The translations under genes were made by a program, and so were the position numbers. Under the pieces are notes generated by a model. The model did no database searches. It saw only the letters and a program-made list of their open reading frames with translations, and was not told the origin of the DNA. Below, piece by piece: positions 1 through 20,195 of a DNA stretch of 21,742 bases. The DNA is taken from the IMG/VR virus record IMGVR_UViG_3300049793_000137, positions 1-21,742 of that record; one strand, 5' to 3'. The stretch is from a virus. Numbering within the stretch: the first letter of the stretch is position 1; each line of letters opens with the position of its first letter.

Positions 1-280
1 GGAAGAATTTGCCCCTGAAGAAGTCGCCGCCAACATCGCGCTGTCGATCAAGATGATGGCTGAACGACCGGTTATTCGGAATGTCGAGCCGGAGATGAAG
101 ACCGCGGCCAGTCCGACGATCAACATCGCAATGACCGACAATCGCGAGCCGACGGTCGTCAATGTCGCGCCGCCGAACGTCATCATAGAGGCAAAGCACA
201 CCAAGGAAATCACGACTGTCACCGGCTACGACAAGAACGGTCGGATCAAGTCGTTTGAAAAAGAAGAGGTGGACAAGTGA
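1..280 (+). CDS. C-terminal end of an upstream phage head-region protein (5' partial)
   Basis: The reading frame is open from base 2 with no start visible, so the gene begins upstream; the ATG at 53 is probably internal. About 92 residues are visible. The first part looks helical. Then comes a stretch rich in Val, Pro and Asn (TVVNVAPPNVIIEAK) and a charged end (VTGYDKNGRIKSFEKEE). From memory, this style of ending, with alternating V/P strands followed by a 'YD..GRI..FE' motif, is common on small proteins or C-terminal tails near the portal and capsid genes of proteobacterial siphophages. I cannot name the protein. Its stop codon overlaps the next gene's GTG start (GTGA, 277-280), so the two are translationally coupled. 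Confidence 0.7.
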   Translation, partial: EEFAPEEVAANIALSIKMMAERPVIRNVEPEMKTAASPTINIAMTDNREPTVVNVAPPNVIIEAKHTKEITTVTGYDKNGRIKSFEKEEVDK

Positions 281-678
281 CACTCCAATATTCCGTTGCC
301 GTAAGAAATGCCAAGCTCGACGCGATCGAAACGGCGATCAGCACGTCGGCGATCATGAAAATCAGGACGACGACGGTTCCTGCCAATTGCGCGGCGGCTG
401 ATGCTGGCGCGGTGCTCGCGACCGTTGCGCTTGGCGCGGATTGGATGGCCGCCGCCTCGGGTGGCGCGAAAGCAAAATCCGGCACATGGGAAGACACATC
501 CGCCGATGCATCGGGAACGGCTGCGCATTTCCGCATCTATGCTTCTGACGGCACGACCTGCCATATCCAAGGCACGGTCGGCACCAGCGGCACCGACATG
601 ATCGTGGATTCGGTCAGCTTCACGGCCGGCCAGGATTTCATCGTCAACACGTTCACCATCACCGACAACAACGCCTGA
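277..678 (+). CDS. Small phage virion-type hypothetical protein, 133 aa
   Basis: The GTG start overlaps the previous stop and is preceded by a purine-rich AGGTGG at about 267-272. The N-terminus has a short helix (VRNAKLDAIETAI). The rest looks beta-rich, with many Thr, Ser, Ala and Gly and a motif read as DWMAAASGGAKAKSGTW. Two Cys are present, one in VPANCAA and one in TTCHIQG. I recall this protein type as a recurring hypothetical between head genes in alphaproteobacterial phages, but it has no assigned function that I know of. Its position between head genes suggests a minor virion or decoration protein; that is inference. A 13-nt gap with a strong AGGAGGAG site leads to the next gene. 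Confidence 0.8.
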   Translation: MTLQYSVAVRNAKLDAIETAISTSAIMKIRTTTVPANCAAADAGAVLATVALGADWMAAASGGAKAKSGTWEDTSADASGTAAHFRIYASDGTTCHIQGTVGTSGTDMIVDSVSFTAGQDFIVNTFTITDNNA

Positions 679-994: not shown

Positions 995-1540
995 ATGGGT
1001 CGGCAACTTTTTCAGGATGGTCCATTTATTGACCCACCGGTCACTGCTCCGGGCGCCTATTCCACAACAACGATCGCCCCGCTGTGGCCGGCCGCATCGT
1101 TCACGCCAATCTTTGCCAACGATCCGAAGGCAGGGAAAATCTATTGTGTCCGTGCTGGCGGCATTATTACCATGTCCGTCAACACCTGCTCGCTGTTGAT
1201 TACGCCTAAATACGGAACTGGTCTTGTTGTCCTCGGTGCCGGCCCGGCGCAAGTCCTGCCGGTCATGACCAACATCCCATGGTATCTGCAGGCGGAACTG
1301 GTGTTCAGGACCATTGGCGCAGCCGGCACGAACTCGACGGCGGTTCTGTCGGGTGTGATGTCGATCCAGGGCACACTTGCCACCGCCGGCGCAGGGACAA
1401 ACGTGGTCTTCGGCTCAACGGCATCGGTTAATGTCGACGCCACGATCAACAGCAACATCGAGATCAACACGACGCTGGGTGGCACTACGGGGTCACCGTC
1501 TCTACAGACGCTTTGGGCATATCTGTTCAGCCGGAATTAA
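995..1540 (+). CDS. Probable phage virion protein (beta-rich), 181 aa
   Basis: The ATG at 995 has a modest AGGG site about 10 nt upstream. The sequence opens with an extended segment (GRQLFQDGPF, then APLWPAA) and is then Thr/Val/Ala-rich with alternating strands (IYCVRAGGIITMSV, VVLGAGPAQVLPV, ELVFRTIGAAGTNS). The last third includes VFGSTASVNVDATINSNIEI and the aromatic end LWAYLFSRN. This pattern fits a jelly-roll or beta-sandwich virion protein such as a capsid decoration protein. That assignment rests on composition and context, not on a recognised family. It ends three bases before the repeat protein, so the two are surely co-translated. Confidence 0.75.
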   Translation: MGRQLFQDGPFIDPPVTAPGAYSTTTIAPLWPAASFTPIFANDPKAGKIYCVRAGGIITMSVNTCSLLITPKYGTGLVVLGAGPAQVLPVMTNIPWYLQAELVFRTIGAAGTNSTAVLSGVMSIQGTLATAGAGTNVVFGSTASVNVDATINSNIEINTTLGGTTGSPSLQTLWAYLFSRN

Positions 1541-1543
1541 ACG

Positions 1544-3073
1544 ATGCCGACATTCCACGGGACACGTCAACAAGGTGGCGTTCCAAATGTCCCGCGCTCG
1601 TTGCCAGTCGTTCGAAGCTACCAGAAAAGGATACCCAATCCGCTCGGCGTAATCACCGGCACTGTCGCGGCAACTGAGGCTGCTGACAGCGCCTCGATTG
1701 CGGCAATCTTGAAGGTGCAGGCTACATTCTCTGCGACCGAAGCGGCCGATACGGTCTCGGCAACGGCAGTTGTCAAAATCCAGTCAAGCCTGTCGGCAAC
1801 AGAAAGCGCCGATACCCTCGCATCTGCCGCGGCGCTGAAGATCAAGGCGACGTTGGCCTCCACCGAGGGTGCCGACACGCTTTCTGGCGCGGCCAAGGTA
1901 AAGCTACAGGCCACAGATGCGACCACAGAAGCTGCCGACACGCTCTCCTCGGCATCGGCGCTTAAAATACAGGCATCTGTTTCTGCGACGGAAGCCACGA
2001 ATACCCTATCGTCAGCCGCCGCTCTCAAGTTGCAAGGATCTCTGTCGAGGGCAGAAAGCGCCGACACATTAACAGGTTCTGCAAGCCTCAAACTTCAAGC
2101 GGCGTTTGCAAACACGGAAACCGCTGACAGCCTCGCCAGCGCGACCATTCTGAAACTGAAAGGAACCGAGACCGCCACCGAAGCTGCGGATACAGTTTCC
2201 TCGACGGCTGCGCTCAAAATTCAGAGTTCGCTTTCCGTAACCGAAGCGGCAGATACGCTATCGTCTTCCGGCGTATTGAAGCTTCAGGCCACTTTTTCGA
2301 CGACGGAGTCCGCAGACACCTTAACCTCGTTGGCTGTTCTGAAATTACAGGCCGGCGAAGGCACTACGGAAGCGGCCGACGCATTGTCCGCTTCGGCGGG
2401 TCTGAAAATTCAGGCATCGCTGACGGTGACAGAAGGCGCCGACATTCTCTCGGCATCGTCAGTCATCCCGATCAATGCGGTGCTGGCGAAAAGCGAGGCT
2501 GCCGACACGCTCGGTTCAACGGCAAACCTGAAGGTTCAAGGAGCAGAGGCAGGCGTCGAGCGGGCTGACACCCTTGGCTCTGCCGCCAAACTAAAGCTGC
2601 AGGTAGTTCTAACCAGTACGGAAGGAGCAGACACATCAACGGCGGCTGCCGCACTGAAAGTTCATGCGAGCCGCGCCGGACTTGAACAGGCCGACACGCT
2701 GGCCGCCAGCGCATCGCTTAGGCTCAAAGCAAGCTTCTCTCAGACCGAAGCCGCTGACACGATGGATTCAGTCGGAAGTCTGGAATTTGCCGATACGCTT
2801 GTTTCAAATTCGGGTGCCGAAGTCGCCATTATTGCTGGTCTGGGGACTATTGAAGCGGCCGATGTGCTGGCCTCTATAGCCACCATACCCGTTCAGGAAA
2901 TCTCATTTGGCGGCGTCGTTTTCCATCGGCCCCGTCGCGCCCAACCTCCGCAACTGTCCACTATCACTGCGCGGATCGATATCAATGAAAACGGCGACAC
3001 CTGTGAGGCATCGGCCGCTCTCGGCTTTGATCCTGTCGCCATGGACAACGACTTGCTGCTCATCGCGGCTTGA
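1544..3073 (+). CDS. Tandem 21-residue repeat virion protein, 509 aa
   Basis: Residues 1-42 form a basic, Pro-rich leader. Residues 43-399 are 17 uninterrupted repeats of exactly 21 residues with consensus roughly TEAADTLSSAAxLKIQASLS. Glu3, Ala5, Asp6, position 7 (Thr/Ser), Leu8, Leu14, Lys15 and Gln17 are the most constant. Residues 400-434 look like two fused damaged repeats, a last partial repeat follows (435-451), and residues 452-509 are a different, probably globular end. I recall unnamed TEA-x-DT repeats in other proteobacterial phage structural genes; I know of no function. Position among head genes suggests a capsid-surface or neck-associated fibre. The copies differ strongly in DNA while the protein pattern holds, arguing for selection on the protein. 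Confidence 0.85.
   Translation: MPTFHGTRQQGGVPNVPRSLPVVRSYQKRIPNPLGVITGTVAATEAADSASIAAILKVQATFSATEAADTVSATAVVKIQSSLSATESADTLASAAALKIKATLASTEGADTLSGAAKVKLQATDATTEAADTLSSASALKIQASVSATEATNTLSSAAALKLQGSLSRAESADTLTGSASLKLQAAFANTETADSLASATILKLKGTETATEAADTVSSTAALKIQSSLSVTEAADTLSSSGVLKLQATFSTTESADTLTSLAVLKLQAGEGTTEAADALSASAGLKIQASLTVTEGADILSASSVIPINAVLAKSEAADTLGSTANLKVQGAEAGVERADTLGSAAKLKLQVVLTSTEGADTSTAAAALKVHASRAGLEQADTLAASASLRLKASFSQTEAADTMDSVGSLEFADTLVSNSGAEVAIIAGLGTIEAADVLASIATIPVQEISFGGVVFHRPRRAQPPQLSTITARIDINENGDTCEASAALGFDPVAMDNDLLLIAA
1670..2740 (+). repeat. 17 tandem 63-bp units encoding 21-residue repeats
   Basis: Exact 63-base spacing runs from 1670 (codon for Ala43) to 2740 without a single length change. 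The unit starts are marked by codons for [TSA]-E-x-[AT]-[DN]. Synonymous choices differ widely between copies, for example several different spellings of Ala-Asp-Thr-Leu. The array is therefore old or has diverged under protein-level constraint rather than being a recent expansion. From 2741 the period breaks: the next block is 105 bases, followed by a partial unit starting at 2846. Confidence 0.9.
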
Positions 3074-3083
3074 GGAAATCTGA

Positions 3084-3566
3084 ATGTCAAAACTCGTGCC
3101 CAAATACACGATGTGGGAAGCGCTCAACGCCACTCTCAGTCTCGGCCAGAAGGCGCTCGACGAGATCCGCACGCTCGCGCGCATGCCTGGTCCGGCAGGC
3201 AAGGACGGCATCGGCGTTGATAATGTCAAAGTCAAACATTTGGACAAAGGCCGCATTCAAATCTTTAGTTTCATGCTCAAAGGCGAGGTTGTTTCAGAAC
3301 AACGCCTCGTGACCTCAAATCAGATTTACCGCGGCGTCTACCAGGACGGAAAGCAATACCTGTGCGGTGACACCGTCACATGGAGCGGCTCGCAATGGCA
3401 TTGCGACGCCGAAGAGACGACCGAAAAGCCTGGGCACGTCGACGGCAATGACAAAGCGTGGACGCTCTCCGTGAAGCGTGGATCCGACGGCAAAGACGGC
3501 AAAGACCTTGTTACTGGTCCGCTTCCTTCGGTGAAAATCGACAAGCCTGACGGCAAGGCTGACTGA
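3084..3566 (+). CDS. Collagen-like / carbohydrate-binding-like phage protein, 160 aa
   Basis: The ATG follows a GAGGA site. The N-terminal 30 residues look helical. A collagen-like GPAGKDGIG lies at 36-44 and a second, GSDGKDGKD, at 133-141. Between them, residues 82-131 carry a pattern like the small chitin-binding CBM5/12 fold: YxGVYQDGKQYLCGDTV, then WSGSQWHC, then TTEKPG and AWTL. Aromatic residues W100, W105 and W126 could form the binding face. C94 and C107 could form a disulfide. Phage proteins with this 'GD.V..GG..W....T...PG..W.L' element next to collagen-like repeats are common, and binding to cell-surface glycans is the usual guess. Its place before the gp6-like connector is odd for a tail fibre and suggests display on the head or neck. 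Confidence 0.7.
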   Translation: MSKLVPKYTMWEALNATLSLGQKALDEIRTLARMPGPAGKDGIGVDNVKVKHLDKGRIQIFSFMLKGEVVSEQRLVTSNQIYRGVYQDGKQYLCGDTVTWSGSQWHCDAEETTEKPGHVDGNDKAWTLSVKRGSDGKDGKDLVTGPLPSVKIDKPDGKAD

Positions 3567-4237
3567 TGCGCAACCTGTTCACCGTCACGACCGCGAACAG
3601 CGACCCGCTGCTAACGACGGCAGAGGCGCGCGCCGCAGTAGGCATCACCGACACGTCACGCGATGCTGATCTGACGCGGCTGGTCGCTCGCATCTCGGCC
3701 GCGATCTACCGGGCGTCAAAAGTCAGGACCGACGGCGTACATGCACCGACTTTGCTCTCCGAAAGCGTCACCGAGACCTTCCGGAGCACCACGTTTGAGA
3801 CTTGCGGTCTGAAAAGCCTGCTGCTGTCGCGCCGGCGCATCAGCGACATCGAGACGATCACCGAAGGCACGACCGAGCTCGTCGACGCGGACTTCGAATA
3901 TGATGCGGCCAGCGGCGAACTGTTCCGGCTTGGCTCGAGCGATGTCACCGTATGGCCGAGCGGGCTGATCACAGTCGAATATATCGCTGGCCTGATCGCG
4001 CCGTCAGATGATCTGAAGCTCGCTGCGGAGACATGGCTGCGGGCATTGTGGCGTGATGCCTATCAGACGCCGGCGACGATTCTCGATCCGTTCGAGAAGG
4101 TTGTCGAGATTCCAGGGGTAATTCGACGTGAGAGATGGATCAGCGCGATGACTGTCAATGCAGACATGTCGCTAATGCCGGCAGAGGTAGAATCCATCCT
4201 CTATGACGGCGGCTACATCGAAACATGGGTGGCATGA
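3566..4237 (+). CDS. gp6-like head-tail connector protein, 223 aa
   Basis: The start overlaps the previous stop (TGATG at 3564-3568). The N-terminal part has the HK97 gp6-like (Phage_gp6-like / DnaT-connector) pattern: 'LTTAEARAAVGI' followed by a helix with 'DADLTRLVARISAAIYRASK'. In this family the protein forms a ring under the portal as the first head completion piece. The middle section (residues about 65-150) is beta-rich and the C-terminal half has the helix LKLAAETWLRALWRDAYQ. The length is typical of alphaproteobacterial siphophage connectors. The next gene begins two bases after the stop. The family assignment is from pattern memory; the position between head genes and neck genes agrees with it. 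Confidence 0.75.
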   Translation: MRNLFTVTTANSDPLLTTAEARAAVGITDTSRDADLTRLVARISAAIYRASKVRTDGVHAPTLLSESVTETFRSTTFETCGLKSLLLSRRRISDIETITEGTTELVDADFEYDAASGELFRLGSSDVTVWPSGLITVEYIAGLIAPSDDLKLAAETWLRALWRDAYQTPATILDPFEKVVEIPGVIRRERWISAMTVNADMSLMPAEVESILYDGGYIETWVA

Positions 4238-5333: not shown

Positions 5334-5530
5334 TGGGTATCGTTTCAAGCCGTCCTGCGGTGCCACGGCCGCCGCTATCGAGCAACCCCGAAATCCGTGA
5401 GATACAGTTGCGCGAACGGGCGATTGCCGCCCTGCGCAACGACCGACCACAAAGGCAACCGGATAATTCTTCAATCCTTGGCAATTGGATAGGGCCATTC
5501 CTATTCGGCTGGCTTATGGGACACGACTGA
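5333..5530 (+). CDS. Small protein with hydrophobic C-terminus, 65 aa
   Basis: I take the ATG at 5333, which overlaps the stop of the 40-aa gene. The open frame extends further upstream but only as a shadow of the neighbouring genes. The N-terminal half is Pro/Arg-rich (SSRPAVPRPPLSSNPEIREIQLRERAIAAL is partly helical). The last 20 residues, ILGNWIGPFLFGWLMGHD, are hydrophobic and aromatic, enough for a membrane-associated or buried helix but short for a confident transmembrane call. It is coupled to the next gene by TGATG (5528-5532). I do not recognise a family. Confidence 0.6.
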   Translation: MGIVSSRPAVPRPPLSSNPEIREIQLRERAIAALRNDRPQRQPDNSSILGNWIGPFLFGWLMGHD

Positions 5531-6606
5531 TGACAGACGGTAAGCTCCTACATCGCATCGTGGTCTGGCCGACCTACGAGGACGCCGCTGCGGCCAAAGA
5601 GGATGCGGCAAGCGTTGACTGCAAGCGGGACAACAGACTCACGGTCTGGCCGACCTATGAACAGGCTGCCGCGCATACGAATATAGGCGCTGGCGGGGGC
5701 GGTGGAGCGCCTGAATGGGTGCCTGCCAATGCCGTCGTTCATTCCGACTTTGCCGCCGGCAATCACTGGGCCGGCAACGCGGTCGTGATGCTTGGTGATC
5801 TGTGGGAAGAGAACCTAGATTGGAGCGCCTTTGATCCCGCTCTGGTGACGGCATCTGGTTTGACTAATCATCCGAACGATGCCGCGCCGACTATGAACCG
5901 GACATACTCCGCGCCGCTTTTGGCTGGTGATTTCTATTGCCTGACAACGGCTACCATTGATGTCAATGCATCGTTCGAAATGGCTGCATCGGAACTGCCA
6001 GGGTATACGCTGCATCGGGAACTAGACCCGTCCGCGACCACTGGCACTGTTGGCGGCAACGTGCAGGATTTTGCCGATCTCAGTGAGGACATGCCAAGCC
6101 CGCCCGTCGCGTATCCCAACCTAGGCGCAGTCATGGCTGTGACGGCCGGCACCATCAGAACCGCGATCAATTATAGCGCGGTGAACGAATATAGCGTCGA
6201 TACTATCGGCGACCCTTTGACTGACCTTGAGATTGGCATTCTTGGGTCCGACAATTCGGCGATCATCACAGTCACATATTACGCGGGAGTACCATCCGAC
6301 GCGACCATGCGGACGCTCTCGCTTGTCGGAACGCCAACTGCGCCGAGCAATCTCACCGTCCCCGTTATTCAGGATTTTGGTACGGAAGTCGATGTGATGG
6401 AAGCTGGAACATGGGAGGCAAACCCTCATCCAGAGGATAACTTGACCTATCAATGGTATCGCGATGGTGTGGCGATTGATGGCGAAACGAATTCGTACCA
6501 TGCCTACGTGCCAGAGGATTCCGGTGCTTCCATGAAGGTGCGAGAGACAGCGACCAATGCAGTCGGCTCGGCCAGCGTAGATTCCAACACGATCACGGCT
6601 CCATGA
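5530..6606 (+). CDS. Ig-like-domain virion protein, 358 aa
   Basis: The start is the ATG overlapping the previous stop. The N-terminus carries two copies of a short motif, VVWPTYEDAAA (11-21) and TVWPTYEQAAA (38-48), then a flexible GAGGGGG linker at about 53-59. Residues 60-265 form a beta-rich domain beginning APEWVPANAVVHSDF, a type I recall from several alphaproteobacterial phage proteins without a name. Residues about 268-358 are a bacterial-type Ig-like domain. The core Trp is W309 in YQWYRDG, and the last strands are VRETATNAVGSASVDSNTIT; the usual partner Cys is replaced. Ig-like domains on phage virions are thought to aid weak attachment to carbohydrate or mucus. It is the last gene before a noncoding break with a terminator. 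Confidence 0.75.
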   Translation: MTDGKLLHRIVVWPTYEDAAAAKEDAASVDCKRDNRLTVWPTYEQAAAHTNIGAGGGGGAPEWVPANAVVHSDFAAGNHWAGNAVVMLGDLWEENLDWSAFDPALVTASGLTNHPNDAAPTMNRTYSAPLLAGDFYCLTTATIDVNASFEMAASELPGYTLHRELDPSATTGTVGGNVQDFADLSEDMPSPPVAYPNLGAVMAVTAGTIRTAINYSAVNEYSVDTIGDPLTDLEIGILGSDNSAIITVTYYAGVPSDATMRTLSLVGTPTAPSNLTVPVIQDFGTEVDVMEAGTWEANPHPEDNLTYQWYRDGVAIDGETNSYHAYVPEDSGASMKVRETATNAVGSASVDSNTITAP

Positions 6607-10367: not shown

Positions 10368-13300
10368 AGTCGAACTTCGAACCCTCCGCGTCTCTGCGCA
10401 GGTGGATGCCGGGCAATACAAGGCCGGTGCTGCCGACATGGTGGCCGCCGACAAGTCAATGGTCGCCTCAAAACGCGAACTCGGACAGGCGGTCGCGGCG
10501 AACGATTCCAAAATCAGCCAGTCCGGAGATGCCCTTGCAAAGCTAACGCGTCTGATGATCGATGGCGCTGGCACGCAGCAGAAGTTCGCTCAAGGTCTTG
10601 GCGTGATTCAGCGCAGTCTGGATACCGGCAAGGTCAGTATCGAGGGCGCTGCGGCTCTCTTAGTCGGGATGAACCAGAAGCTCGGCCTGACCGCCGATGT
10701 CACGGTTTTCGCGGCAAAGGGGCTGACGCAAATGGCCGAAGCGGCCACCATAGCCAACGCGAGAATAGAAGCTAATACTGGCTCGCTGTCGCGTGCGGTT
10801 GGCGAATATCAAATCTACATCGCACAATTGAAAGAGGCGCAAGCAGCACAGAACAGCAGCCAGTTTGCGAGCGCTAACCAGAACAAGTTCAATTCCCTGC
10901 TTGGCGTGCAGACCCAACCATCTTCGAGCGCGCGCGAATCCGCATCGGTGTTCGCTGCCGGACTACAAGACATCGATAATATCGCGCAGTTGAAAGCGCA
11001 GCAGATCGGCCAGAATTTCGGCAATGATCTCAACATTTCGCTCGTCGCCGGCAGTTCAAAGTCGGCTCGTGATGCGGCTGCGGCCTTTAGTACCGAACTC
11101 GACCGGATCGATGCTCTGGCGCAGTTGAAGGCTACCCAGATCGGGGCCAACTTCCAGAGCGATCTCAACGCATCACTTGGCGTAGGCTCATTTGGTGGTG
11201 GTTCGGCGCGGGCGTCAGCGTCGGTATTCGAGGAAGCCGGCCGCGAAGCCGATCAGATGGCGTCGAAGGTCGCGGCGCTACGGGCAGAATTGAACCCCGT
11301 GGCTGCGGCTCAAGACCGCCTCAACGCCGAATTGGCCGAATTTAATAATCTTGCGGCAAAAGGCGCCATTTCTGCGGAAGAATTGGCAGCCGCGCAGACT
11401 ATGGCGCGCAGCCGCGCAGCCGCAAACCAGGGTGGCTTGAACCGCTTCGGCGCGATGAACGCCACAAGCCAGCTTCAAGACATCGCCATCACAAGTGCCA
11501 TGGGCCAGAGCCCAATGACGATTGCGCTTCAGCAAGGCACCCAACTTGGCATGGCAATGCAGATGTCTGGCGTCCAAGGTGGGGCAGGCCTTGTCAAAAG
11601 CCTTAGCACTGCCTTTACGGGTCTTCTTACGGAGACAAATCTTGTCGCCATAGGGCTCACCGCCGTCGCCGCTATCGCCATCCAGTTCGGTTCGAAACTC
11701 TTCGATGGTTTCAAAAGCGCGGAGGAGAAGGCGAGAGAGTTCAATAAGCTGCTGAGCGACCAGAAGGAGATCATCCAGTCTCTTGGTCCCGCCTATGCGG
11801 AGGCGGCACGCCAGCAGCAGTCCACGGGACCGTTTGAGAGCGTCGGCGTCGGTCGTTTGGTGCTTCAACAGAACCTGGATGACGCTAGAAAGGCGTCACA
11901 AGAGCAGGGGCGAACCGCCCTGAAGGAAATCCAGGGGTCTAGCGGCACCTTCATGAATCTCATGAACACGCTCCCGGAGGGCCTTCAGAAAAGCATAGGC
12001 ATCGAGCCGGCGTACATCGAATTTAAGCGCATCATAAATGCTGCCTCCGATGGCGAGATGAGCATCAACGATGCTCGTACCGCTCTGCAGAGATTTGGCG
12101 AGGTCCACCCGGACTTCAGCTATCTCATCGGCCGATTTCTTCAGATGTCCGAGGAAGCCGCCAAGACCGAACGTCAGGTCGGAGGCCTCGTCGGCATCCT
12201 CGATAGGTTCGCGAAGATACGCCTCCCCGAGGCTGGGGTTTTGCCGAAGGGTGTAGCCGGCGATCAAATCGCTTCGGCCACACTTGCCGCGCAAAATCGC
12301 ATGCAACAGCAGTTCGCCGCTGACAATCTCGCCAACTTCGCCAAATCACCACAGGAACTGGCTGCAGCCGCGCGTGCGCGTGCAGCGCTCAATCCACAAG
12401 GTAGCGCTGCCGAACAGGCGACCCGCGTCGAACTCGCCGGCAAACGCGCGCTAATCGATGCCGAGCACGCTCTGAAGGAAGCGCAGGACCAGCGCCTGCG
12501 CTCGCTCAATCAGACGCTCGCCTCGGCGCAACTCGATGTAGAATTAGTTGGCAAGACGAAGGTAGAGATCGATAGTCTGCGCATGGCCGCGCAACTTGAA
12601 GCGCAAGTGCGCGAGGAAGCGGCGCAACACAACATCACCAATGAAACCGAAATCCAGCGTCTCTATGGAAAAGAGATCGCCCAGATCAAGGAGAAGGCCG
12701 CCGCAACCGCCATGCAGAAGGCAATCGCGGACGCTGGTACAGCTCTCCACGGCCGAGAGCAGGAGCTTGAACTCCAGCGCGCAGAAGTCGGCCTGCTCGG
12801 GCAAAATACGCTTGCTCGTGAAGCCGAAATGGCAGCGCTCAAGACAGAACAGGATATCCGCGAGCGTGGCATTCCGCTTTACGGCAAGGAAGCCGAGGGA
12901 CTGCGCGCCGTCACGGCGGCTGAATCTGCCAATGCTGAGGCTCGGGCAAGAGCTTCAATGCAGGCCGATTTGCTTTTCCAGCGCTCGCAAATCCTGCGCA
13001 ATTCTACGGATCAAGCGATAGCCGCAGCCCAGCAGAGCGCCGGCCTGCCGATCGATCTCAATTCCGCCGAAGCCAATATGATGCGCTACAACATGGCGCT
13101 GCAGGAGACCAAGGACACCTTCAAGGGTTTTGCCACCGACATGCTGTCCAGCCTGAAGGAAGGCAAGACGGTATGGGAAAGCTTCGCCACTGCCGCCACC
13201 AACGCACTTGGCAAAATTGCCGACAAGCTCATCGATCAGGGCCTCGACGGCATCTTCAACAATCTGTTCGGCGGTGAATCGGCGGGCGGCGGAACGCTCG

Positions 13301-14739
13301 GTGCCCTGCTATCGGGGAATAGCGGCCAGTCGGGTTCATCGGCCGGCGGTGCATCATCGATCCTGAGCAATCTGTTCGGCGGCGGTCGCTCGCAATCCGT
13401 GGCCACGATGCAGGTGCAGGCAGCGACTGTCTTCATCAATGGTTCACCGGTTGGCGGTGTCGCGGGAGGATTGGGATCGCTGCTCGGTGGCTCCGGCTTT
13501 CAGGCCAACACGACGCTGTCGGACATTCTCGGTTATGGCGGCGGCGCGGCCAATCAAAACATGATCCAGAGCCGCATCGATGGGGCATTCGGCACCACCG
13601 GGCAGGATTATATTCAGAAACGGATAGATCAGGCTTTTGGAACGACTGCTGCCGGGTTTGGCGGCATCATGTCTCCGGCAGGTGGCTTTGCCAGCGTGCT
13701 TGGCGGCGGCCTCACCGGCAGCATGTCGTCATACGCCAGCGCCATCAAAATGATCGAGAGCGCCGGCAGTGGTGGCTATTCGGCACTCGGCCCAGTGCTC
13801 AAGAGCGGCGACCAGGCGCTTGGCGCCTATCAGGTGATGCGGAGCAATCTGCCGTCCTGGTCGACGGAGGCTTTCGGCAAGCCGATGTCGCAGAGCCAGT
13901 TCATGTCGGATCCTGCCGCGCAGGATGCGATCTTCTCGCAGCAGTTCGGCAAGTATCTGTCGAAATACGGCAACCCGCAGGACGCCGCATCGGCATGGTT
14001 CACCGGCGGCCCGTTGTCGGCTGGCGCTGGCAAGTCCGATGTTCTCGGCACCACCGGTTCCAAGTATGTCGACATGTTCAATGACAATCTTAAGAAGATG
14101 GGCGGCAGCGCTTCGCAGGCAAGCAGCGCGTTGAGCGGTCTCGGCGGCGCATCGGAAGGCCTGATTTCACAGTTCAGCAAGATGGGCCAGAGCCTGCTGT
14201 CGCAATTGACGCCGGCGACGAGCAGCACGAGTTGGTTCCAAGGCCTGTCCGGCATGTTCGGCGGGTCGTCTGGCGCGCTCGGCTTCATGAGTTCGATCTC
14301 ACCTGCGGCAACGAGCGACATCCTGTCCGGCTCGTGGGGCCTGTTCGACACCGGTGGCTTCACTGGTCTTGGCGGCAAAAATCAGCCGGCTGGCATCGTG
14401 CATCGCGGCGAGATCGTATGGTCACAGAATGATATCGCGCGCGCTGGCGGCGTTGGTGCAGTTGAAGGCATGCGCCGCGGCTATGCCGGCTATGCCGATG
14501 GCGGCTATGCTGACAGGATTCGCATGCGCTTTAGTAGCGGGCGACACAACGACAACATGGGCGCTGCGGCTTCCAATTCCAACGGTCGTAGCGGCTCTGT
14601 TGCGAATGACCGGCCGGCGCAGAACATCCAGCAGACCAACAACTTCATCTTCCGCGAAAATCCTGCCGCGCCTGCCAGTCAGAACCAGATCGCGCAGAAA
14701 AGCGCCAAGGCTTTGGAACGCCTGACGAGGGTTTCATGA
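10360..14739 (+). CDS. Tail tape measure protein with lytic transglycosylase-like domain, 1459 aa
   Basis: This is the largest gene, right after the chaperones, with a strong AAGGAAGGAGGG site. Residues 1-300 are long helices and include about 2.7 copies of a 45-46-residue repeat (178-223, 224-268, 269-about 302). The tape-measure segment 'SQLQDIAITSAMGQSPMTIALQQG' precedes a hydrophobic stretch at about 428-445. A second helical region covers 600-950. Gly-rich linkers at about 960-1110 include a tandem 16-residue repeat (1068-1099). Residues about 1128-1245 resemble a lytic transglycosylase: IES with Glu1133 as likely catalytic acid, then ALGAYQVM, and AASAWFTGGP. The end has the typical 'FDTGGFTG....PAGIVHRGEIVWSQNDI' motif (1329-1358). 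It sets tail length (at about 0.15 nm per residue, near 200 nm) and may cut peptidoglycan at entry. Confidence 0.88.
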   Translation: MAEVELRTLRVSAQVDAGQYKAGAADMVAADKSMVASKRELGQAVAANDSKISQSGDALAKLTRLMIDGAGTQQKFAQGLGVIQRSLDTGKVSIEGAAALLVGMNQKLGLTADVTVFAAKGLTQMAEAATIANARIEANTGSLSRAVGEYQIYIAQLKEAQAAQNSSQFASANQNKFNSLLGVQTQPSSSARESASVFAAGLQDIDNIAQLKAQQIGQNFGNDLNISLVAGSSKSARDAAAAFSTELDRIDALAQLKATQIGANFQSDLNASLGVGSFGGGSARASASVFEEAGREADQMASKVAALRAELNPVAAAQDRLNAELAEFNNLAAKGAISAEELAAAQTMARSRAAANQGGLNRFGAMNATSQLQDIAITSAMGQSPMTIALQQGTQLGMAMQMSGVQGGAGLVKSLSTAFTGLLTETNLVAIGLTAVAAIAIQFGSKLFDGFKSAEEKAREFNKLLSDQKEIIQSLGPAYAEAARQQQSTGPFESVGVGRLVLQQNLDDARKASQEQGRTALKEIQGSSGTFMNLMNTLPEGLQKSIGIEPAYIEFKRIINAASDGEMSINDARTALQRFGEVHPDFSYLIGRFLQMSEEAAKTERQVGGLVGILDRFAKIRLPEAGVLPKGVAGDQIASATLAAQNRMQQQFAADNLANFAKSPQELAAAARARAALNPQGSAAEQATRVELAGKRALIDAEHALKEAQDQRLRSLNQTLASAQLDVELVGKTKVEIDSLRMAAQLEAQVREEAAQHNITNETEIQRLYGKEIAQIKEKAAATAMQKAIADAGTALHGREQELELQRAEVGLLGQNTLAREAEMAALKTEQDIRERGIPLYGKEAEGLRAVTAAESANAEARARASMQADLLFQRSQILRNSTDQAIAAAQQSAGLPIDLNSAEANMMRYNMALQETKDTFKGFATDMLSSLKEGKTVWESFATAATNALGKIADKLIDQGLDGIFNNLFGGESAGGGTLGALLSGNSGQSGSSAGGASSILSNLFGGGRSQSVATMQVQAATVFINGSPVGGVAGGLGSLLGGSGFQANTTLSDILGYGGGAANQNMIQSRIDGAFGTTGQDYIQKRIDQAFGTTAAGFGGIMSPAGGFASVLGGGLTGSMSSYASAIKMIESAGSGGYSALGPVLKSGDQALGAYQVMRSNLPSWSTEAFGKPMSQSQFMSDPAAQDAIFSQQFGKYLSKYGNPQDAASAWFTGGPLSAGAGKSDVLGTTGSKYVDMFNDNLKKMGGSASQASSALSGLGGASEGLISQFSKMGQSLLSQLTPATSSTSWFQGLSGMFGGSSGALGFMSSISPAATSDILSGSWGLFDTGGFTGLGGKNQPAGIVHRGEIVWSQNDIARAGGVGAVEGMRRGYAGYADGGYADRIRMRFSSGRHNDNMGAAASNSNGRSGSVANDRPAQNIQQTNNFIFRENPAAPASQNQIAQKSAKALERLTRVS

Positions 14740-16455: not shown

Positions 16456-16857
16456 ATGAGCGCTGAAGACTTCCTCGCCGCCGCACGCGGCTTTCTTGGT
16501 GTGCCTTGGATGCACCAGGGACGCACGGACAAGGGCATGGATTGCGTCGGGCTTATCGTGCTGTCTGCACGCGCCGCAGGCATCGATGCCCCTCTGACGG
16601 CCGACTATGGCCGGATGCAGGACTATCGGCAGGCGAGGCGGTATCTGGAACAGTTTTGCGACCGTGTCGGCTCTCCAGAAATTGGCGATATCGTGCTGTT
16701 CAAGACATCCCAGACCTTGCATATGGCGATCGTCTCCGAAGTTGACGGCTTGCGCCCGACGCGGGTTATCCAGGCGCTTGGCCCGAAGTCGAATGTCGTC
16801 GACACCGCGCTGCAATTCTCGCCGCTGATGCTGTGGAGGCCAAAATGGCCTTCATAG
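16456..16857 (+). CDS. NlpC/P60-family tail peptidase, 133 aa
   Basis: This is a cysteine peptidase of the phage_NlpC family (TIGR02219) found in tail tips, thought to cut peptide crosslinks of peptidoglycan during entry. The catalytic Cys30 is in GMDCVGLIV at the start of a helix, and His89 is in LHMAIVS. The third polar position, usually His in 'IHA', is Gln106 (VIQALG). The N-terminus AARGFLGVPWMHQGR and the end LMLWRPKW are typical, as is the length. It is placed between the hub and tip genes, as in the gene transfer agent, and begins three bases after the hub stop. Its end overlaps the next gene by 13 nt. Confidence 0.88.
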   Translation: MSAEDFLAAARGFLGVPWMHQGRTDKGMDCVGLIVLSARAAGIDAPLTADYGRMQDYRQARRYLEQFCDRVGSPEIGDIVLFKTSQTLHMAIVSEVDGLRPTRVIQALGPKSNVVDTALQFSPLMLWRPKWPS

Positions 16858-19800
16858 CGCCATTAGCCGGTCTCGCAGTCGGCGGCGGCCTCCTCGGTTC
16901 GATCGTCACGACGGCTGTTGGCGTCGGCATCAATCTGGCCATCGCCTATTTCTTCCCGCAGAAGATCAAGGGTCCGCGCGCCGAAAGCCTCAAGGCGCAG
17001 ACATCGCGCTATGGTGAGCAACTGGCACGCACCTATGGTTCGATCCGAACAGCCGGTGCAGTGGTCTGGCTCAAGGGCGATCACGTCGACGAGCATGTCA
17101 AGACAGAGCGGCAGGGCAAAGCGCTCGGCCCGGAGGTGACGACATACAGTTACACCGCAACCTTCGCCGTCGCTTTCGCGTGGAATGGTCCCTTTGCAGC
17201 GGTGCCGCGCATCTGGGCCGACGACAAGCTGATCTATGACGCCTCATCGGAGGCGCTGCAGAATGCCATCGACAATGGCGGCTCTGCCATTGGCGTTGCC
17301 AAAGGAGCGACAGTCACCATCCATCTTGGCACCGACGACCAAGCCTCAGACTCCGACATCGAGGCCGACAAAGGCGCTGGCAATGTGCCGGCATGGCCTG
17401 GCATCTGCTATGTCGTGATCAAGAACCTGCCGCTCGATGAATTTGGCATTCGTGTACCCAACATTGAAGGGGAACTCGTTCGCGTTGGCTCCAGCAGCTA
17501 TCTGGAGGTAGCACTTGGGGCGATCGGCACCGGTGGCGGATTTTTTTCGTGGGATACCAATGGCCTCTATGCTGCATGGAGTGGTTTGCACTCGTCCGTT
17601 GACAGTTTCTTCATATGGTCACTGCCGGCCGGGACAAGGCGCGATATCCAGGTAAGCACGTCGGGCGGCGGCGTTCATATAGACGACAGAAATAATGTCA
17701 TTCTCTGCAATAGGACAACCATCTATGTCTACGACGCTGCAACGGGATCGCTTACCCAGACGATAACAAGGGGCATAACCGGGTCAACCACCATTTTTGG
17801 CTCCGTTATGGATGATGTCACGGTTGGCGGAACGACTTACCTTCTGATGTTCACGACCGACGGCCATTACTTCACGCTGCTGACCAACGACGGTACGGGT
17901 TACGCAAAGCAGTGGGAGACTGCATCTACGTTCTTTTCCAGTATATTAGGCGCACATGGTGCTAGTGTTGGTCCAGACTGGGGCTATTTTATTCGCAATA
18001 ATAATACCGACATCATCCGGGTAAAAATTCAGATCTCCGGATTGTCGGAAGTGGCTATCGCTCCATCTGGCCTTACTGATGACATCGCCATCTGCAACTA
18101 TGATGAGGATTCCGACAGTGTCGTCATCGTCTGTGTAAACGGCGATATCTTCGTCTATAACGCGGCGCTTTCGAGCTTGCTCCGGTCTAAGACCGGGAAT
18201 GGCTTTACGGTCCCTGTCGCGCAGGGTTCCAATTCCAAGAGGATGAAAGTCGCCAGCGACGAGATCGGCATCGTTGCCGATGGCAACACAGTCTACATTT
18301 TCAAGCTGTCGGACCTCTCACTTATTAGGTCGATTGTCCCCAGCGTCGTCGGATGGTCGTACAGTTCCAGCGAGCGGGCAGTCTTCAGCTTCAATTCGAC
18401 GATGGCGATGATCTTTGCCGCCTATCACGTTCTGCCAAGCTACCTCTGGTTTATGCCCCGTTCTGATCGCGGGCCGGAATCACTTGCTGATATCATCGAG
18501 CAGGAATGCCTTTATGCAGGTCTGCTTTCCGATGTCTCTGCGATATCGACGCAGATCTATGGCTATGGTGATAGAGCCGGCACACCGCCGCGCGGCATTA
18601 TCGAAGATCTGACCCGCGTCAATTTCATCGATTTCGCGCAGATCGACGGCGTCCAGACATTCTTTCCTCGCGAGACAAACGCGTTCCGCACCATCACGCT
18701 TGATGAAATCGGCATGGCGCTCAATGCCGAACCCGATCCGGTGCAGATCAGCGAGGAGTATCCATCGGCGCTCGACATGCCGGAACAAGTCATCATCACC
18801 TATCCGAGCTATGATGCCGTCTATCGCATCGGCGCACAGGCCGGCAACACTAAGGAAGACCAAAAATTTAATGATGAGCCGTCGCAGGCCGATGAGACTG
18901 GCGCGCCGATCAAGGTTCGGCGCAAGCGCGCGATGGAGTTTTCCACTGCACAGGTGCTGACTGATCAGGATGCGGCCAGGGTCGCCGATATCCTGCACAA
19001 TTCACTGATCGACGCCGCCACAGTCTACAAGACCACCACCAGCCAAAAGCATATGGACCTGCATCCAGGCCAAGTCGTCAACCTGCCGCTCGATGATACC
19101 AGAGCGACCAAGGCCGTCCTGACCAAGATGTCAGGCGATACCGTCCTTGAAATGGAATTCCGCAAGCGCGGCGACAGCTACACATCCGACGCAGTGGCAC
19201 AGCCGACACCCTATGTTGTCGACACTCTGCTCGGGATTGCCGATGCCACACCAGTTTTGATCGATGGTCATCTGCTGCGTGCCGCAGACAACAATGATGG
19301 CTTTTACGCTGGCGTGGCTGTGGTATCGGCTGGCAACTTCCGTTCAGCATCGATCTATCGTTCCGAGGATGGCGGATCGAATTATGCACCTTGGGCTGGT
19401 TTCACCAACGGCATGATCCGCGGCATTGCCTTGGATGCGCTGCCCAACAGGCCACATCCGGCCGCCTTCGATCGCGCCACGAACTTCAACATTGCGGTCC
19501 CCGTCGGCACGGCACCAGACAATGTCAGCGAGGAAGTTCTGCTTGCTGGCGAGACCTCGAATGCCTTTGCCGTCTGGAACGCCAGTCTCGGCGATTGGGA
19601 GTATATCCGCGCTGCCTCCGTGGTCGATAATATGGATGGCACATGGACGCTGTCGACGCTACTCAGGGGTTTGAAGGGCACCGAGTTCGCCATGGTCGGC
19701 CATGCAGCAGGTGCTGTCGTCTACCATCTGGATGATCAGGCAATGACGAGGGCACTTGAAGGTGATCGCACGTTGTCACGCATCTATGTCGCCGTGCCGA

Positions 19801-20195
19801 CCTCGACGGTGTTCGATTCCACCGGTGCGGTCACCTTCACCAACTATGGCAAGGGGCTTCGCTGCTGGTCGCCGCAACTCGTCAGCGCCGTGCTCGATGA
19901 TGGAACTGGCGACTGGATACTGACATGGAATCGGCGTGATCGTCTCGGCCAGGCATGGCCGGAGAGTGGTTCTGAAACGCCGCCGATGAGCGAAAGCGTC
20001 GAGTCCTACACAATCAACATCTATGACGGCATGGGCGTTCTGGTGAACAGCTATGCCTCGACCGTCGAGACCTATACCTACACCTCAGCCGACCAGACGA
20101 CCGATTTCGGCTCTCCCCAGACAACCCTTGAATTTGGCATTGCCCAGGTCTCTTCGATCTATGGCGATGGCGTCGAATTGAGAGAAGCCGCCTAG
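16845..20195 (+). CDS. Tail tip / host attachment protein with beta-propeller insert, 1116 aa
   Basis: I prefer ATG 16845, with GGAGG 5 nt upstream, over the in-frame GTG at 16833. The N-terminus has a hydrophobic Gly/Ala segment (PLAGLAVGGGLLGSIVTTAVGVG, residues about 5-35) typical of these tip proteins. Residues about 40-220 form the first conserved domain, ending DEFGIRVPNIEGELVRVG. Residues about 221-535 appear to be an insert that reads as seven blades of a beta-propeller. The Phage-tail_3-type region then resumes (SLADIIEQECLYAGLLSDVS, EYPSALDMPEQVIITYPSYDAVY, about 545-770), followed by C-terminal beta domains (LLRGLKGTEFAM, about 905-1116). It lacks the TIM-barrel of the GTA homologue. 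The protein is expected to close the tail tip and contact the host. Confidence 0.82.
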   Translation: MAFIAPLAGLAVGGGLLGSIVTTAVGVGINLAIAYFFPQKIKGPRAESLKAQTSRYGEQLARTYGSIRTAGAVVWLKGDHVDEHVKTERQGKALGPEVTTYSYTATFAVAFAWNGPFAAVPRIWADDKLIYDASSEALQNAIDNGGSAIGVAKGATVTIHLGTDDQASDSDIEADKGAGNVPAWPGICYVVIKNLPLDEFGIRVPNIEGELVRVGSSSYLEVALGAIGTGGGFFSWDTNGLYAAWSGLHSSVDSFFIWSLPAGTRRDIQVSTSGGGVHIDDRNNVILCNRTTIYVYDAATGSLTQTITRGITGSTTIFGSVMDDVTVGGTTYLLMFTTDGHYFTLLTNDGTGYAKQWETASTFFSSILGAHGASVGPDWGYFIRNNNTDIIRVKIQISGLSEVAIAPSGLTDDIAICNYDEDSDSVVIVCVNGDIFVYNAALSSLLRSKTGNGFTVPVAQGSNSKRMKVASDEIGIVADGNTVYIFKLSDLSLIRSIVPSVVGWSYSSSERAVFSFNSTMAMIFAAYHVLPSYLWFMPRSDRGPESLADIIEQECLYAGLLSDVSAISTQIYGYGDRAGTPPRGIIEDLTRVNFIDFAQIDGVQTFFPRETNAFRTITLDEIGMALNAEPDPVQISEEYPSALDMPEQVIITYPSYDAVYRIGAQAGNTKEDQKFNDEPSQADETGAPIKVRRKRAMEFSTAQVLTDQDAARVADILHNSLIDAATVYKTTTSQKHMDLHPGQVVNLPLDDTRATKAVLTKMSGDTVLEMEFRKRGDSYTSDAVAQPTPYVVDTLLGIADATPVLIDGHLLRAADNNDGFYAGVAVVSAGNFRSASIYRSEDGGSNYAPWAGFTNGMIRGIALDALPNRPHPAAFDRATNFNIAVPVGTAPDNVSEEVLLAGETSNAFAVWNASLGDWEYIRAASVVDNMDGTWTLSTLLRGLKGTEFAMVGHAAGAVVYHLDDQAMTRALEGDRTLSRIYVAVPTSTVFDSTGAVTFTNYGKGLRCWSPQLVSAVLDDGTGDWILTWNRRDRLGQAWPESGSETPPMSESVESYTINIYDGMGVLVNSYASTVETYTYTSADQTTDFGSPQTTLEFGIAQVSSIYGDGVELREAA
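17506..18450 (+). other. Probable seven-bladed beta-propeller insertion in the tail tip gene
   Basis: About 315 residues between two conserved tip domains show repeating strand patterns of 40-48 residues with acidic turns. Examples are DDRNNVILCNRTTIYVYDAATGSL, YDEDSDSVVIVCVNGDIFVYN and ASDEIGIVADGNTVYIFKLSDLSL. Seven such units can be drawn. Local codon use is more AT-rich than the flanks, for example around 17930-18020. Confidence 0.55.

What the first reader, a model, noticed from the sequence alone, without database searches (positions are those of the whole stretch)
1544..3073. 509-aa phage protein built of 17 exact 21-residue repeats
Seventeen consecutive units keep an exact 63-base period, while synonymous and hydrophobic positions drift. 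The invariant core is Glu, Ala-Asp-Thr-Leu and Leu-Lys-x-Gln. The position among head/connector genes is unusual for a long repetitive fibre. A 17-unit solenoid or trimeric shaft with a regularly spaced acidic pair could be a capsid-mounted fibre or a metal-binding rod. I know of similar unnamed repeats but of no function.
Basis: partly seen in the sequence, partly recalled or inferred. Interest (0 to 1): 0.7.

Follow-up and report, generated by a model that had tools for sequence, protein, structure and literature searches.

The report
String of a beaded phage fibre
A phage protein made of about twenty 21-residue units is probably the string of a beads-on-a-string virion fibre whose bead protein is encoded just upstream, and the two proteins appear to have changed together across many phages.

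Summary
The repeat is real: 17 ungapped 21-residue units (residues 43-399) plus about three degenerate ones. Periodicity score is 655 against a shuffle maximum of 53, and synonymous sites are saturated, so the array is old. The protein has no Pfam or PDB match. It is not an isolated oddity. In 42 of 47 viral contigs with this repeat, a small beta-rich protein (phrog_3758; window 277-678) lies upstream on the same strand. Searching from that protein instead, 47 of 52 loci with at least 3 kb downstream carry a 20-24-residue repeat ORF; portal-matched contigs without it carry one in 2 to 5 of 65. Its solved relatives are the garland protein of phage 7-7-1 and a KPP25 virion protein; its predicted fold also resembles a protein in the Sf14 neck, where whiskers are threaded. 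Bead residue 5 tracks the chemistry of the repeat: Tyr with Glu..Asp or other polar repeats (56/60), never Tyr with Leu..Val repeats (0/30), even between beads 80-90% identical. I conclude that the repeat protein is the string and phrog_3758 the bead of a virion appendage, probably on the neck or head. Direct binding, stoichiometry and location are inferred. An independent beta-solenoid shaft is the main rival. Metal binding is unlikely.

The parts
277..678 (+). Bead gene: 133-aa beta-rich virion protein (phrog_3758), relative of the 7-7-1 garland proteins and KPP25 gp07; carries Tyr5, as expected for a Glu..Asp string
   Evidence: PHROG match E 1.3e-32; PDB profile matches 44nx_B 3e-15 and 9rkv_A 1.4e-8; fold match of a homologue's model to 9rkv_A
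1544..3073 (+). String gene: 509-aa protein of about twenty 21-residue units
   Evidence: phrog_38872 (unknown function) E 3.4e-22; no Pfam or PDB match
1670..2740 (+). Seventeen ungapped units, consensus xTEAADTLSSAAALKLQASLS
2741..2893 (+). Degenerate units after the regular array (residues 400-450)
2957..3070 (+). Last unit (about residues 472-495, ENGDT) and C-terminal tail PVAMDNDLLLIAA, shared with L003 and the G001 prophage
2..280 (+). 3' end of a gene open at the window start; in the related prophage G001 the whole gene follows the portal gene and precedes the bead gene
995..1540 (+). 181-aa protein of unknown function between bead and string genes; possible further appendage part
   Evidence: no confident family match
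3084..3566 (+). 160-aa protein with a weak CBM5/12-like segment; follows the string gene also in L003 and G001
   Evidence: (Pfam E 0.0044, below cut-off)
3566..4237 (+). Head-tail adaptor: downstream landmark of the slot
   Evidence: phrog_442 E 4e-14

Best explanation
The repeat protein is the string of a composite, beads-on-a-string virion appendage. Each 21-residue unit is one docking site for the bead protein (phrog_3758, window 277-678; its solved relatives form dimers). Unit positions 3 and 6 (Glu..Asp here) meet the bead's N-terminal segment, in which Tyr5 reads them. The number of units sets how many beads bind and hence the length of the fibre (one unit in a related prophage, about 40 in some phages). 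In several relatives an N-terminal lectin-like domain sits at one end of the string and a short C-terminal tail at the other, one of which should anchor it to the particle. The appendage most likely sits on the neck or head, where Sf14 carries its whiskers, and helps the particle adhere to host surfaces. Shown: repeats, partner synteny in both directions, homology of the bead to solved virion proteins, residue-class covariation. Inferred: direct binding, one bead dimer per unit, location, adhesion.
For: (1) String to bead: 42 of 47 IMG/VR loci with the repeat have phrog_3758 upstream on the same strand, 6 nt to 3.3 kb away; four of the five without it have short upstream sequence. (2) Bead to string: 47 of 52 bead loci with 3 kb downstream carry a 20-24-aa repeat ORF, mostly period 21; in bacterial genomes 19 of 26. 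(3) Control: contigs selected by a portal protein have such repeats in 5 of 6 cases with bead and room, but in 2 of 65 without bead, or 5 if coiled-coil hits in the portal itself are counted. (4) Covariation: polar strings go with bead Tyr5 in 56 of 60, hydrophobic strings in 0 of 30, Fisher 7e-20; at 80-90% bead identity the Tyr state agrees in 0 of 48 opposite-class pairs and 91 of 104 same-class pairs; the next columns are 13, 3 and 17, all N-terminal, the bead end farther from the string gene in most loci. (5) Solved relatives of the bead: 7-7-1 gp014, reported as homodimeric garland protein; KPP25 gp07, two chains with one chain of gp06 in 44NX; weaker fold resemblance to a chain of the Sf14 neck, where one gp30 chain threads through two whiskers. 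(6) PMC10811340 describes related-fold dimers in A511 as beads on a string and says that the string of the Milano garland is unknown. (7) Named phages with the bead have 20-23-aa repeat proteins beside it: Curvibacter P26059A, Pan4, Mae-JY02, Mwe-JY26, Charlie gp22, Send513 gp32, 7-7-1 gp009.
Against: No complex was modelled or measured. AlphaFold2 gave conflicting folds for the repeats. The bead tree is poorly resolved: 13 changes of string class on the best tree but only one pair on well-supported branches, so the number of independent switches is uncertain. String classes were assigned by pattern and twelve assignments were set by eye. Mwe-JY26 (Gln..Asp string with Leu5 bead) looks like an exception. 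KPP25 and Seuss have the bead but no 21-residue repeat protein nearby. The bead seed alignment came from string-bearing loci. In 7-7-1 the bead is at the baseplate, not the neck, and in mycobacteriophages and Seuss the gene lies among tail genes, so location cannot be read from homology.
Confidence: 0.6

Rival explanations
1. The repeats fold on their own into a rigid beta-solenoid or multimeric shaft with 21 residues per turn (about 8 nm for 17 turns); phrog_3758 binds at one end as anchor or cap only.
For: Strict period; one of five AlphaFold2 models of six units is a three-strand-per-turn solenoid with pLDDT 76, pTM 0.65. A ladder would also keep all units in one residue class.
Against: The other four models scored 30-50; Foldseek finds no PDB match at E<=0.001; a second prediction gave helices. 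Stacking 17 Glu and 16 Asp in register would be unfavourable. A cap alone does not readily explain why the bead residue tracks a residue shared by every unit.
Confidence: 0.22
2. Same bead and string, but part of the tail tip or baseplate receptor-binding net (garland-like) and not of neck or head.
For: 7-7-1 gp014 forms a garland around tail fibres; in Charlie, Send513 and Seuss the bead gene lies among minor tail genes.
Against: In the window and G001 the genes lie between portal and head-tail adaptor, in L127-type phages directly after the portal, in Mwe-JY26 after the major capsid gene; Sf14 whisker genes occupy the portal-capsid slot. Gene position is only a hint.
Confidence: 0.3
3. The regular Glu..Asp pairs bind metal ions and stiffen a rod.
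For: Glu3 17/17 and Asp6 16/17 in the window.
Against: Similar strings with the same period and neighbour have Leu..Val, Gln..Gln or Asn..Ser there; the acid pair is predicted by bead Tyr5.
Confidence: 0.03
4. Bead and string merely travel together as a cassette, and the residue covariation is shared ancestry rather than contact.
For: Poorly resolved bead tree; genes usually within 3 kb.
Against: Association is peaked at columns 5, 13, 3, 17 rather than spread over the bead, and flips between beads up to 87% identical (L118 Tyr, L108 Leu). Linkage would favour the bead end nearest the string gene; the peak is at the other end.
Confidence: 0.15

Closest known systems
Garland proteins of Agrobacterium phages 7-7-1 (gp014, gp012) and Milano (gp125, gp127)
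   Same: 7-7-1 gp014 and gp012 are sequence relatives of the bead, and a Milano protein is 77% identical to gp014; small beta-rich proteins reported as dimers forming a chain; 7-7-1 gp009 and gp010 next to them are also repetitive
   Different: Garland sits at the baseplate; its string has not been identified; 7-7-1 gp009 has only five units of another sequence (APMADA)
Neck whiskers of Shigella phage Sf14 (gp30, gp31; 9C39)
   Same: Fold resemblance of the bead model to 9c39_K (probability 0.84, E 0.056); one gp30 chain threads through two whiskers; genes lie between portal and capsid
   Different: Two dimers per whisker, no repeat protein described; resemblance is weak and by fold only; which Sf14 gene chain K is was not checked
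BW3TFN connectors T4 gp8 and A511 gp105 (from PMC10811340)
   Same: Reported beads-on-a-string arrangement in A511 in which an extended chain runs across dimers
   Different: The link to the window bead goes through the Milano garland proteins; T4 gp8 and A511 gp105 did not appear in the Foldseek list
KPP25 gp06/gp07 (44NX)
   Same: gp07 is a bead relative (3e-15) and is in one PDB entry with gp06, two chains to one
   Different: gp06 (620 aa) has no 21-residue repeats; I could not read the coordinates
PHROG family 38872
   Same: Matches the repeat region, E 3.4e-22
   Different: No function assigned; repeat-driven match

Membership tests
phrog_3758 / garland-type bead (window 277-678) | Sequence homology over full length | tested here: met
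   PHROG 1.3e-32, residues 2-132; PDB profile matches
phrog_3758 / garland-type bead (window 277-678) | Same fold as a solved member | tested here: met
   Model of homologue L018 (bead about 70% identical to the window's) matches 9rkv_A: E 4e-6, probability 1.0, TM 0.60 by target
phrog_3758 / garland-type bead (window 277-678) | Dimeric and present in the virion | not testable with these tools
   Reported for 7-7-1 gp014; not known for this phage
Bead-associated 21-residue string (proposed here) | 20-24-residue tandem repeat protein beside a bead gene, same strand | tested here: met
   Window: period 21, bead gene ends 866 nt upstream
Bead-associated 21-residue string (proposed here) | Residue class at unit positions 3/6 matches bead residue 5 | tested here: met
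   Window: Glu..Asp with Tyr5; group statistics
Bead-associated 21-residue string (proposed here) | Physical binding of bead to each unit | not testable with these tools
   No multimer prediction available
Beta-solenoid fibre | Confident solenoid model with structural relatives | tested here: inconclusive
   1 of 5 models at pLDDT 76, no Foldseek match E<=0.001; contrary model
Metal-binding repeat rod | Acidic pair conserved across the family | tested here: not met
   Replaced by Leu..Val or Gln..Gln in relatives with the same period
Ig-like (Hoc-type) head fibre | Ig domain matches in the protein | tested here: not met
   No Pfam match in the repeat protein

The most novel reading that the evidence does not exclude
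A widespread, modular class of phage appendage built from one bead fold and interchangeable 21-residue strings: bead residue 5 and unit positions 3/6 form a readable specificity code, unit number sets fibre length, and strings such as 7-7-1 gp009/gp010 are the missing string of garlands or the unidentified capsid fibres.
Probability: 0.4. Interest if true: 0.85.

Novelty: new variant of a known kind. Interest (0 to 1): 0.7.

Why it matters
Structural papers report garlands, whiskers and beads-on-a-string dimers but leave the string of the Milano garland and the 7-7-1 capsid-fibre proteins unidentified. This finding offers a string family recognisable by sequence in many phages, mainly of Alphaproteobacteria but also in Burkholderiales, cyanobacterial and mycobacterial phages, and a specific residue code that can be tested with single substitutions. 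It would also give function to two unnamed phage protein families (phrog_3758 beyond 'structural', phrog_38872) and suggest a simple way in which phages lengthen or exchange adhesive fibres.

Tried and rejected
Single-protein search of IMG/VR with the window protein found no relative; a profile of four-unit pieces found 47. Pfam on 40 six-unit fragments gave only scattered weak matches; PDB profile hits to BMC shell proteins at E 0.02-0.9 were judged chance. A model of bead plus string of L018, joined by reading the two stop codons between the adjacent in-frame genes as glycine (a tether for modelling only), did not settle docking: bead parts above 90 pLDDT, repeats helical at low to medium confidence, coordinates not available. 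The bead profile over all subtypes was too diverse to search with; a closer set worked. Searching with the tail-tip protein gave only two related prophages, which were nevertheless useful. Metal binding, Ig-type head fibre and recent repeat expansion were considered and rejected. Eight literature searches found no description of the string family.

Full report
What is there. The window is a 21,742-base IMG/VR virus fragment with the gene order of a long-tailed phage: an upstream gene cut by the window start, a 133-aa structural protein (277-678), two further ORFs, the repeat gene (1544-3073), a CBM5/12-like protein, a head-tail adaptor, tail terminator, tape measure (called from size and position) and a tail-tip protein with a Rcc01698-like C-terminus. 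The repeat protein has 17 ungapped 21-residue units plus about three degenerate ones. The periodicity is far beyond chance, and its synonymous sites are saturated, so the array is old. Window units do not pair in order with those of the nearest full-length relative L003, so units have been reshuffled or have drifted. Two near-identical phages, L018 and L027, differ by exactly one unit. The related prophage G001 has a 128-aa version with a single clear unit and the same C-terminal tail at the same place.

Relatives. A profile of unit blocks found 47 IMG/VR loci. The proteins have from three to about forty units, nearly always 21 residues apart, with occasional spacing of 22-25. Several carry other domains in front of the repeats: a laminin-G-type lectin domain in L024 and DUF2341 in L011, both above the Pfam cut-off, and a sub-threshold SPRY in L009. 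This fits a shaft or tether with a binding head.

The partner. In 42 of the 47 loci the same gene, phrog_3758, lies upstream on the same strand, from 6 nt to 3.3 kb away. Four of the five exceptions have little upstream sequence, and one of those (L021) lies on a contig that also bears a bead. From the bead side the link holds too: 47 of 52 loci with at least 3 kb downstream have a repeat ORF of period 20-24, and 47 of the 57 such ORFs have period 21; 19 of 26 loci in bacterial genomes have one. As control I took contigs selected by a portal protein: with bead and enough sequence 5 of 6 have such repeats; without bead 2 of 65 do, or 5 of 65 if coiled-coil hits in the portal itself are counted. 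The string sequences differ widely (TEAADTLSA, TLGAVTLSATG, GTLPLTGSATG, TQAAQT), but the period stays.

Covariation. In 98 non-redundant bead-string pairs I classed the strings by the residues at unit positions 3 and 6. Of 90 usable pairs, polar strings (Glu..Asp, Asp..Asp, Gln..Gln, Asn..Ser) go with Tyr at bead position 5 in 56 of 60, and hydrophobic strings (Leu..Val type) with Leu, Phe or Lys in 30 of 30. At 80-90% bead identity, same-class pairs agree in Tyr state in 91 of 104 and opposite-class pairs in 0 of 48. The next most associated columns are 13, 3 and 17, so the signal is concentrated in the N-terminal segment. The limits: twelve class assignments were set by eye after the automatic pass, and the bead tree is too short to be well resolved (13 changes on the best tree, one supported pair). 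Outside this set, Curvibacter P26059A and G001 (Glu..Asp, Tyr) agree, Pan4 (hydrophobic, Phe) agrees, and Mwe-JY26 (Gln..Asp, Leu) does not.

What the bead is. A profile of the bead family matches two PDB sequences: 44nx_B (3e-15), identical to Pseudomonas phage KPP25 gp07, and 9rkv_A (1.4e-8), identical to Agrobacterium phage 7-7-1 gp014. The 7-7-1 paper (PMC12796354) describes gp014 as homodimeric garland protein around the tail fibres. The model of a bead homologue matches 9rkv_A by fold (E 4e-6) and, more weakly, chains of the Sf14 neck and the Bas63 connector. The Sf14 paper (PMC11821841) reports whiskers of gp30 and gp31 in which one gp30 chain threads through two whiskers, encoded between portal and capsid. 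The Milano paper (PMC10811340) compares garland dimers with T4 gp8 and A511 gp105, describes beads on a string in A511, and states that the string in Milano is unclear. In 7-7-1 the genes beside the two garland-type proteins gp012 and gp014 include two more repetitive proteins: gp009 with five 21-residue units at its C-terminus and gp010 with a period near 41.

Interpretation. The simplest account is that the repeat protein is a string whose units each hold bead protein. It explains the two-way synteny, the constant period with changing sequence, the uniform residue class of all units within one string, the covariation, and the free variation in unit number. A self-standing solenoid with the bead as cap is the main rival; structure prediction does not decide. 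Gene position (between portal and adaptor here; after the portal in L127-type phages; after the major capsid gene in Mwe-JY26) suggests neck or head, but the 7-7-1 bead is at the baseplate and mycobacteriophage and Seuss copies lie among tail genes, so location is open.

Physical estimate (inference only): an extended 21-residue unit spans up to about 7 nm, so 17-20 units could span some 100-140 nm if fully extended, compared with about 8 nm for a 17-turn solenoid. Length measured by microscopy would separate the two models.

Verdict. Observation confirmed; interpretation as virion appendage partly supported; metal rod unlikely. A new variant of a known kind (garland/whisker bead assemblies) with a testable residue code.

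Noticed in passing
L056 (Agrobacterium phage 7-7-1) 8918-10345 and 7902-8924: gp009 has five C-terminal 21-residue units (APMADAFV type, z 33) and gp010 repeats GDWEYPxY with period about 41 (z 9.7), beside the garland-type proteins; candidates for the garland string or the unidentified capsid fibres.
   Followed up: partly
L018 5917-5925 and L010, L016, L027 at the same place: Bead and string genes are adjacent and in the same frame, separated only by TGA, one codon, TAA; whether read-through occurs was not examined.
   Followed up: no
window 5485-6606: 373-aa protein with an Ig-like C-terminus (weak matches to Hoc-like and tail-protein PHROGs) between adaptor and tail genes; probably another appendage.
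   Followed up: no
L211 (prophage G001), reverse complement 10416-13773: Between bead gene and one-unit string gene lie two glycine-rich proteins and a 506-aa fibre-like protein, so the slot may be a hot spot for adhesin exchange.
   Followed up: partly
L014, L028, L033, L034, L039, L041-L045, L047: A second bead subtype (NGTRPANPNTAITSQ) goes with TEAPDT strings with frequent 24-residue spacing and WTPV-rich tails.
   Followed up: no
L221, L228, L234: Bead genes also occur in contigs assigned to Anaerolinea, a Clostridiales bin and Gemmata; the latter two also have repeat ORFs nearby.
   Followed up: partly
window 16833-20195: Tail-tip protein with a Rcc01698-like C-terminus and a Phage-tail_3 domain; the window's tail module resembles gene-transfer-agent-type tails.
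   Followed up: no
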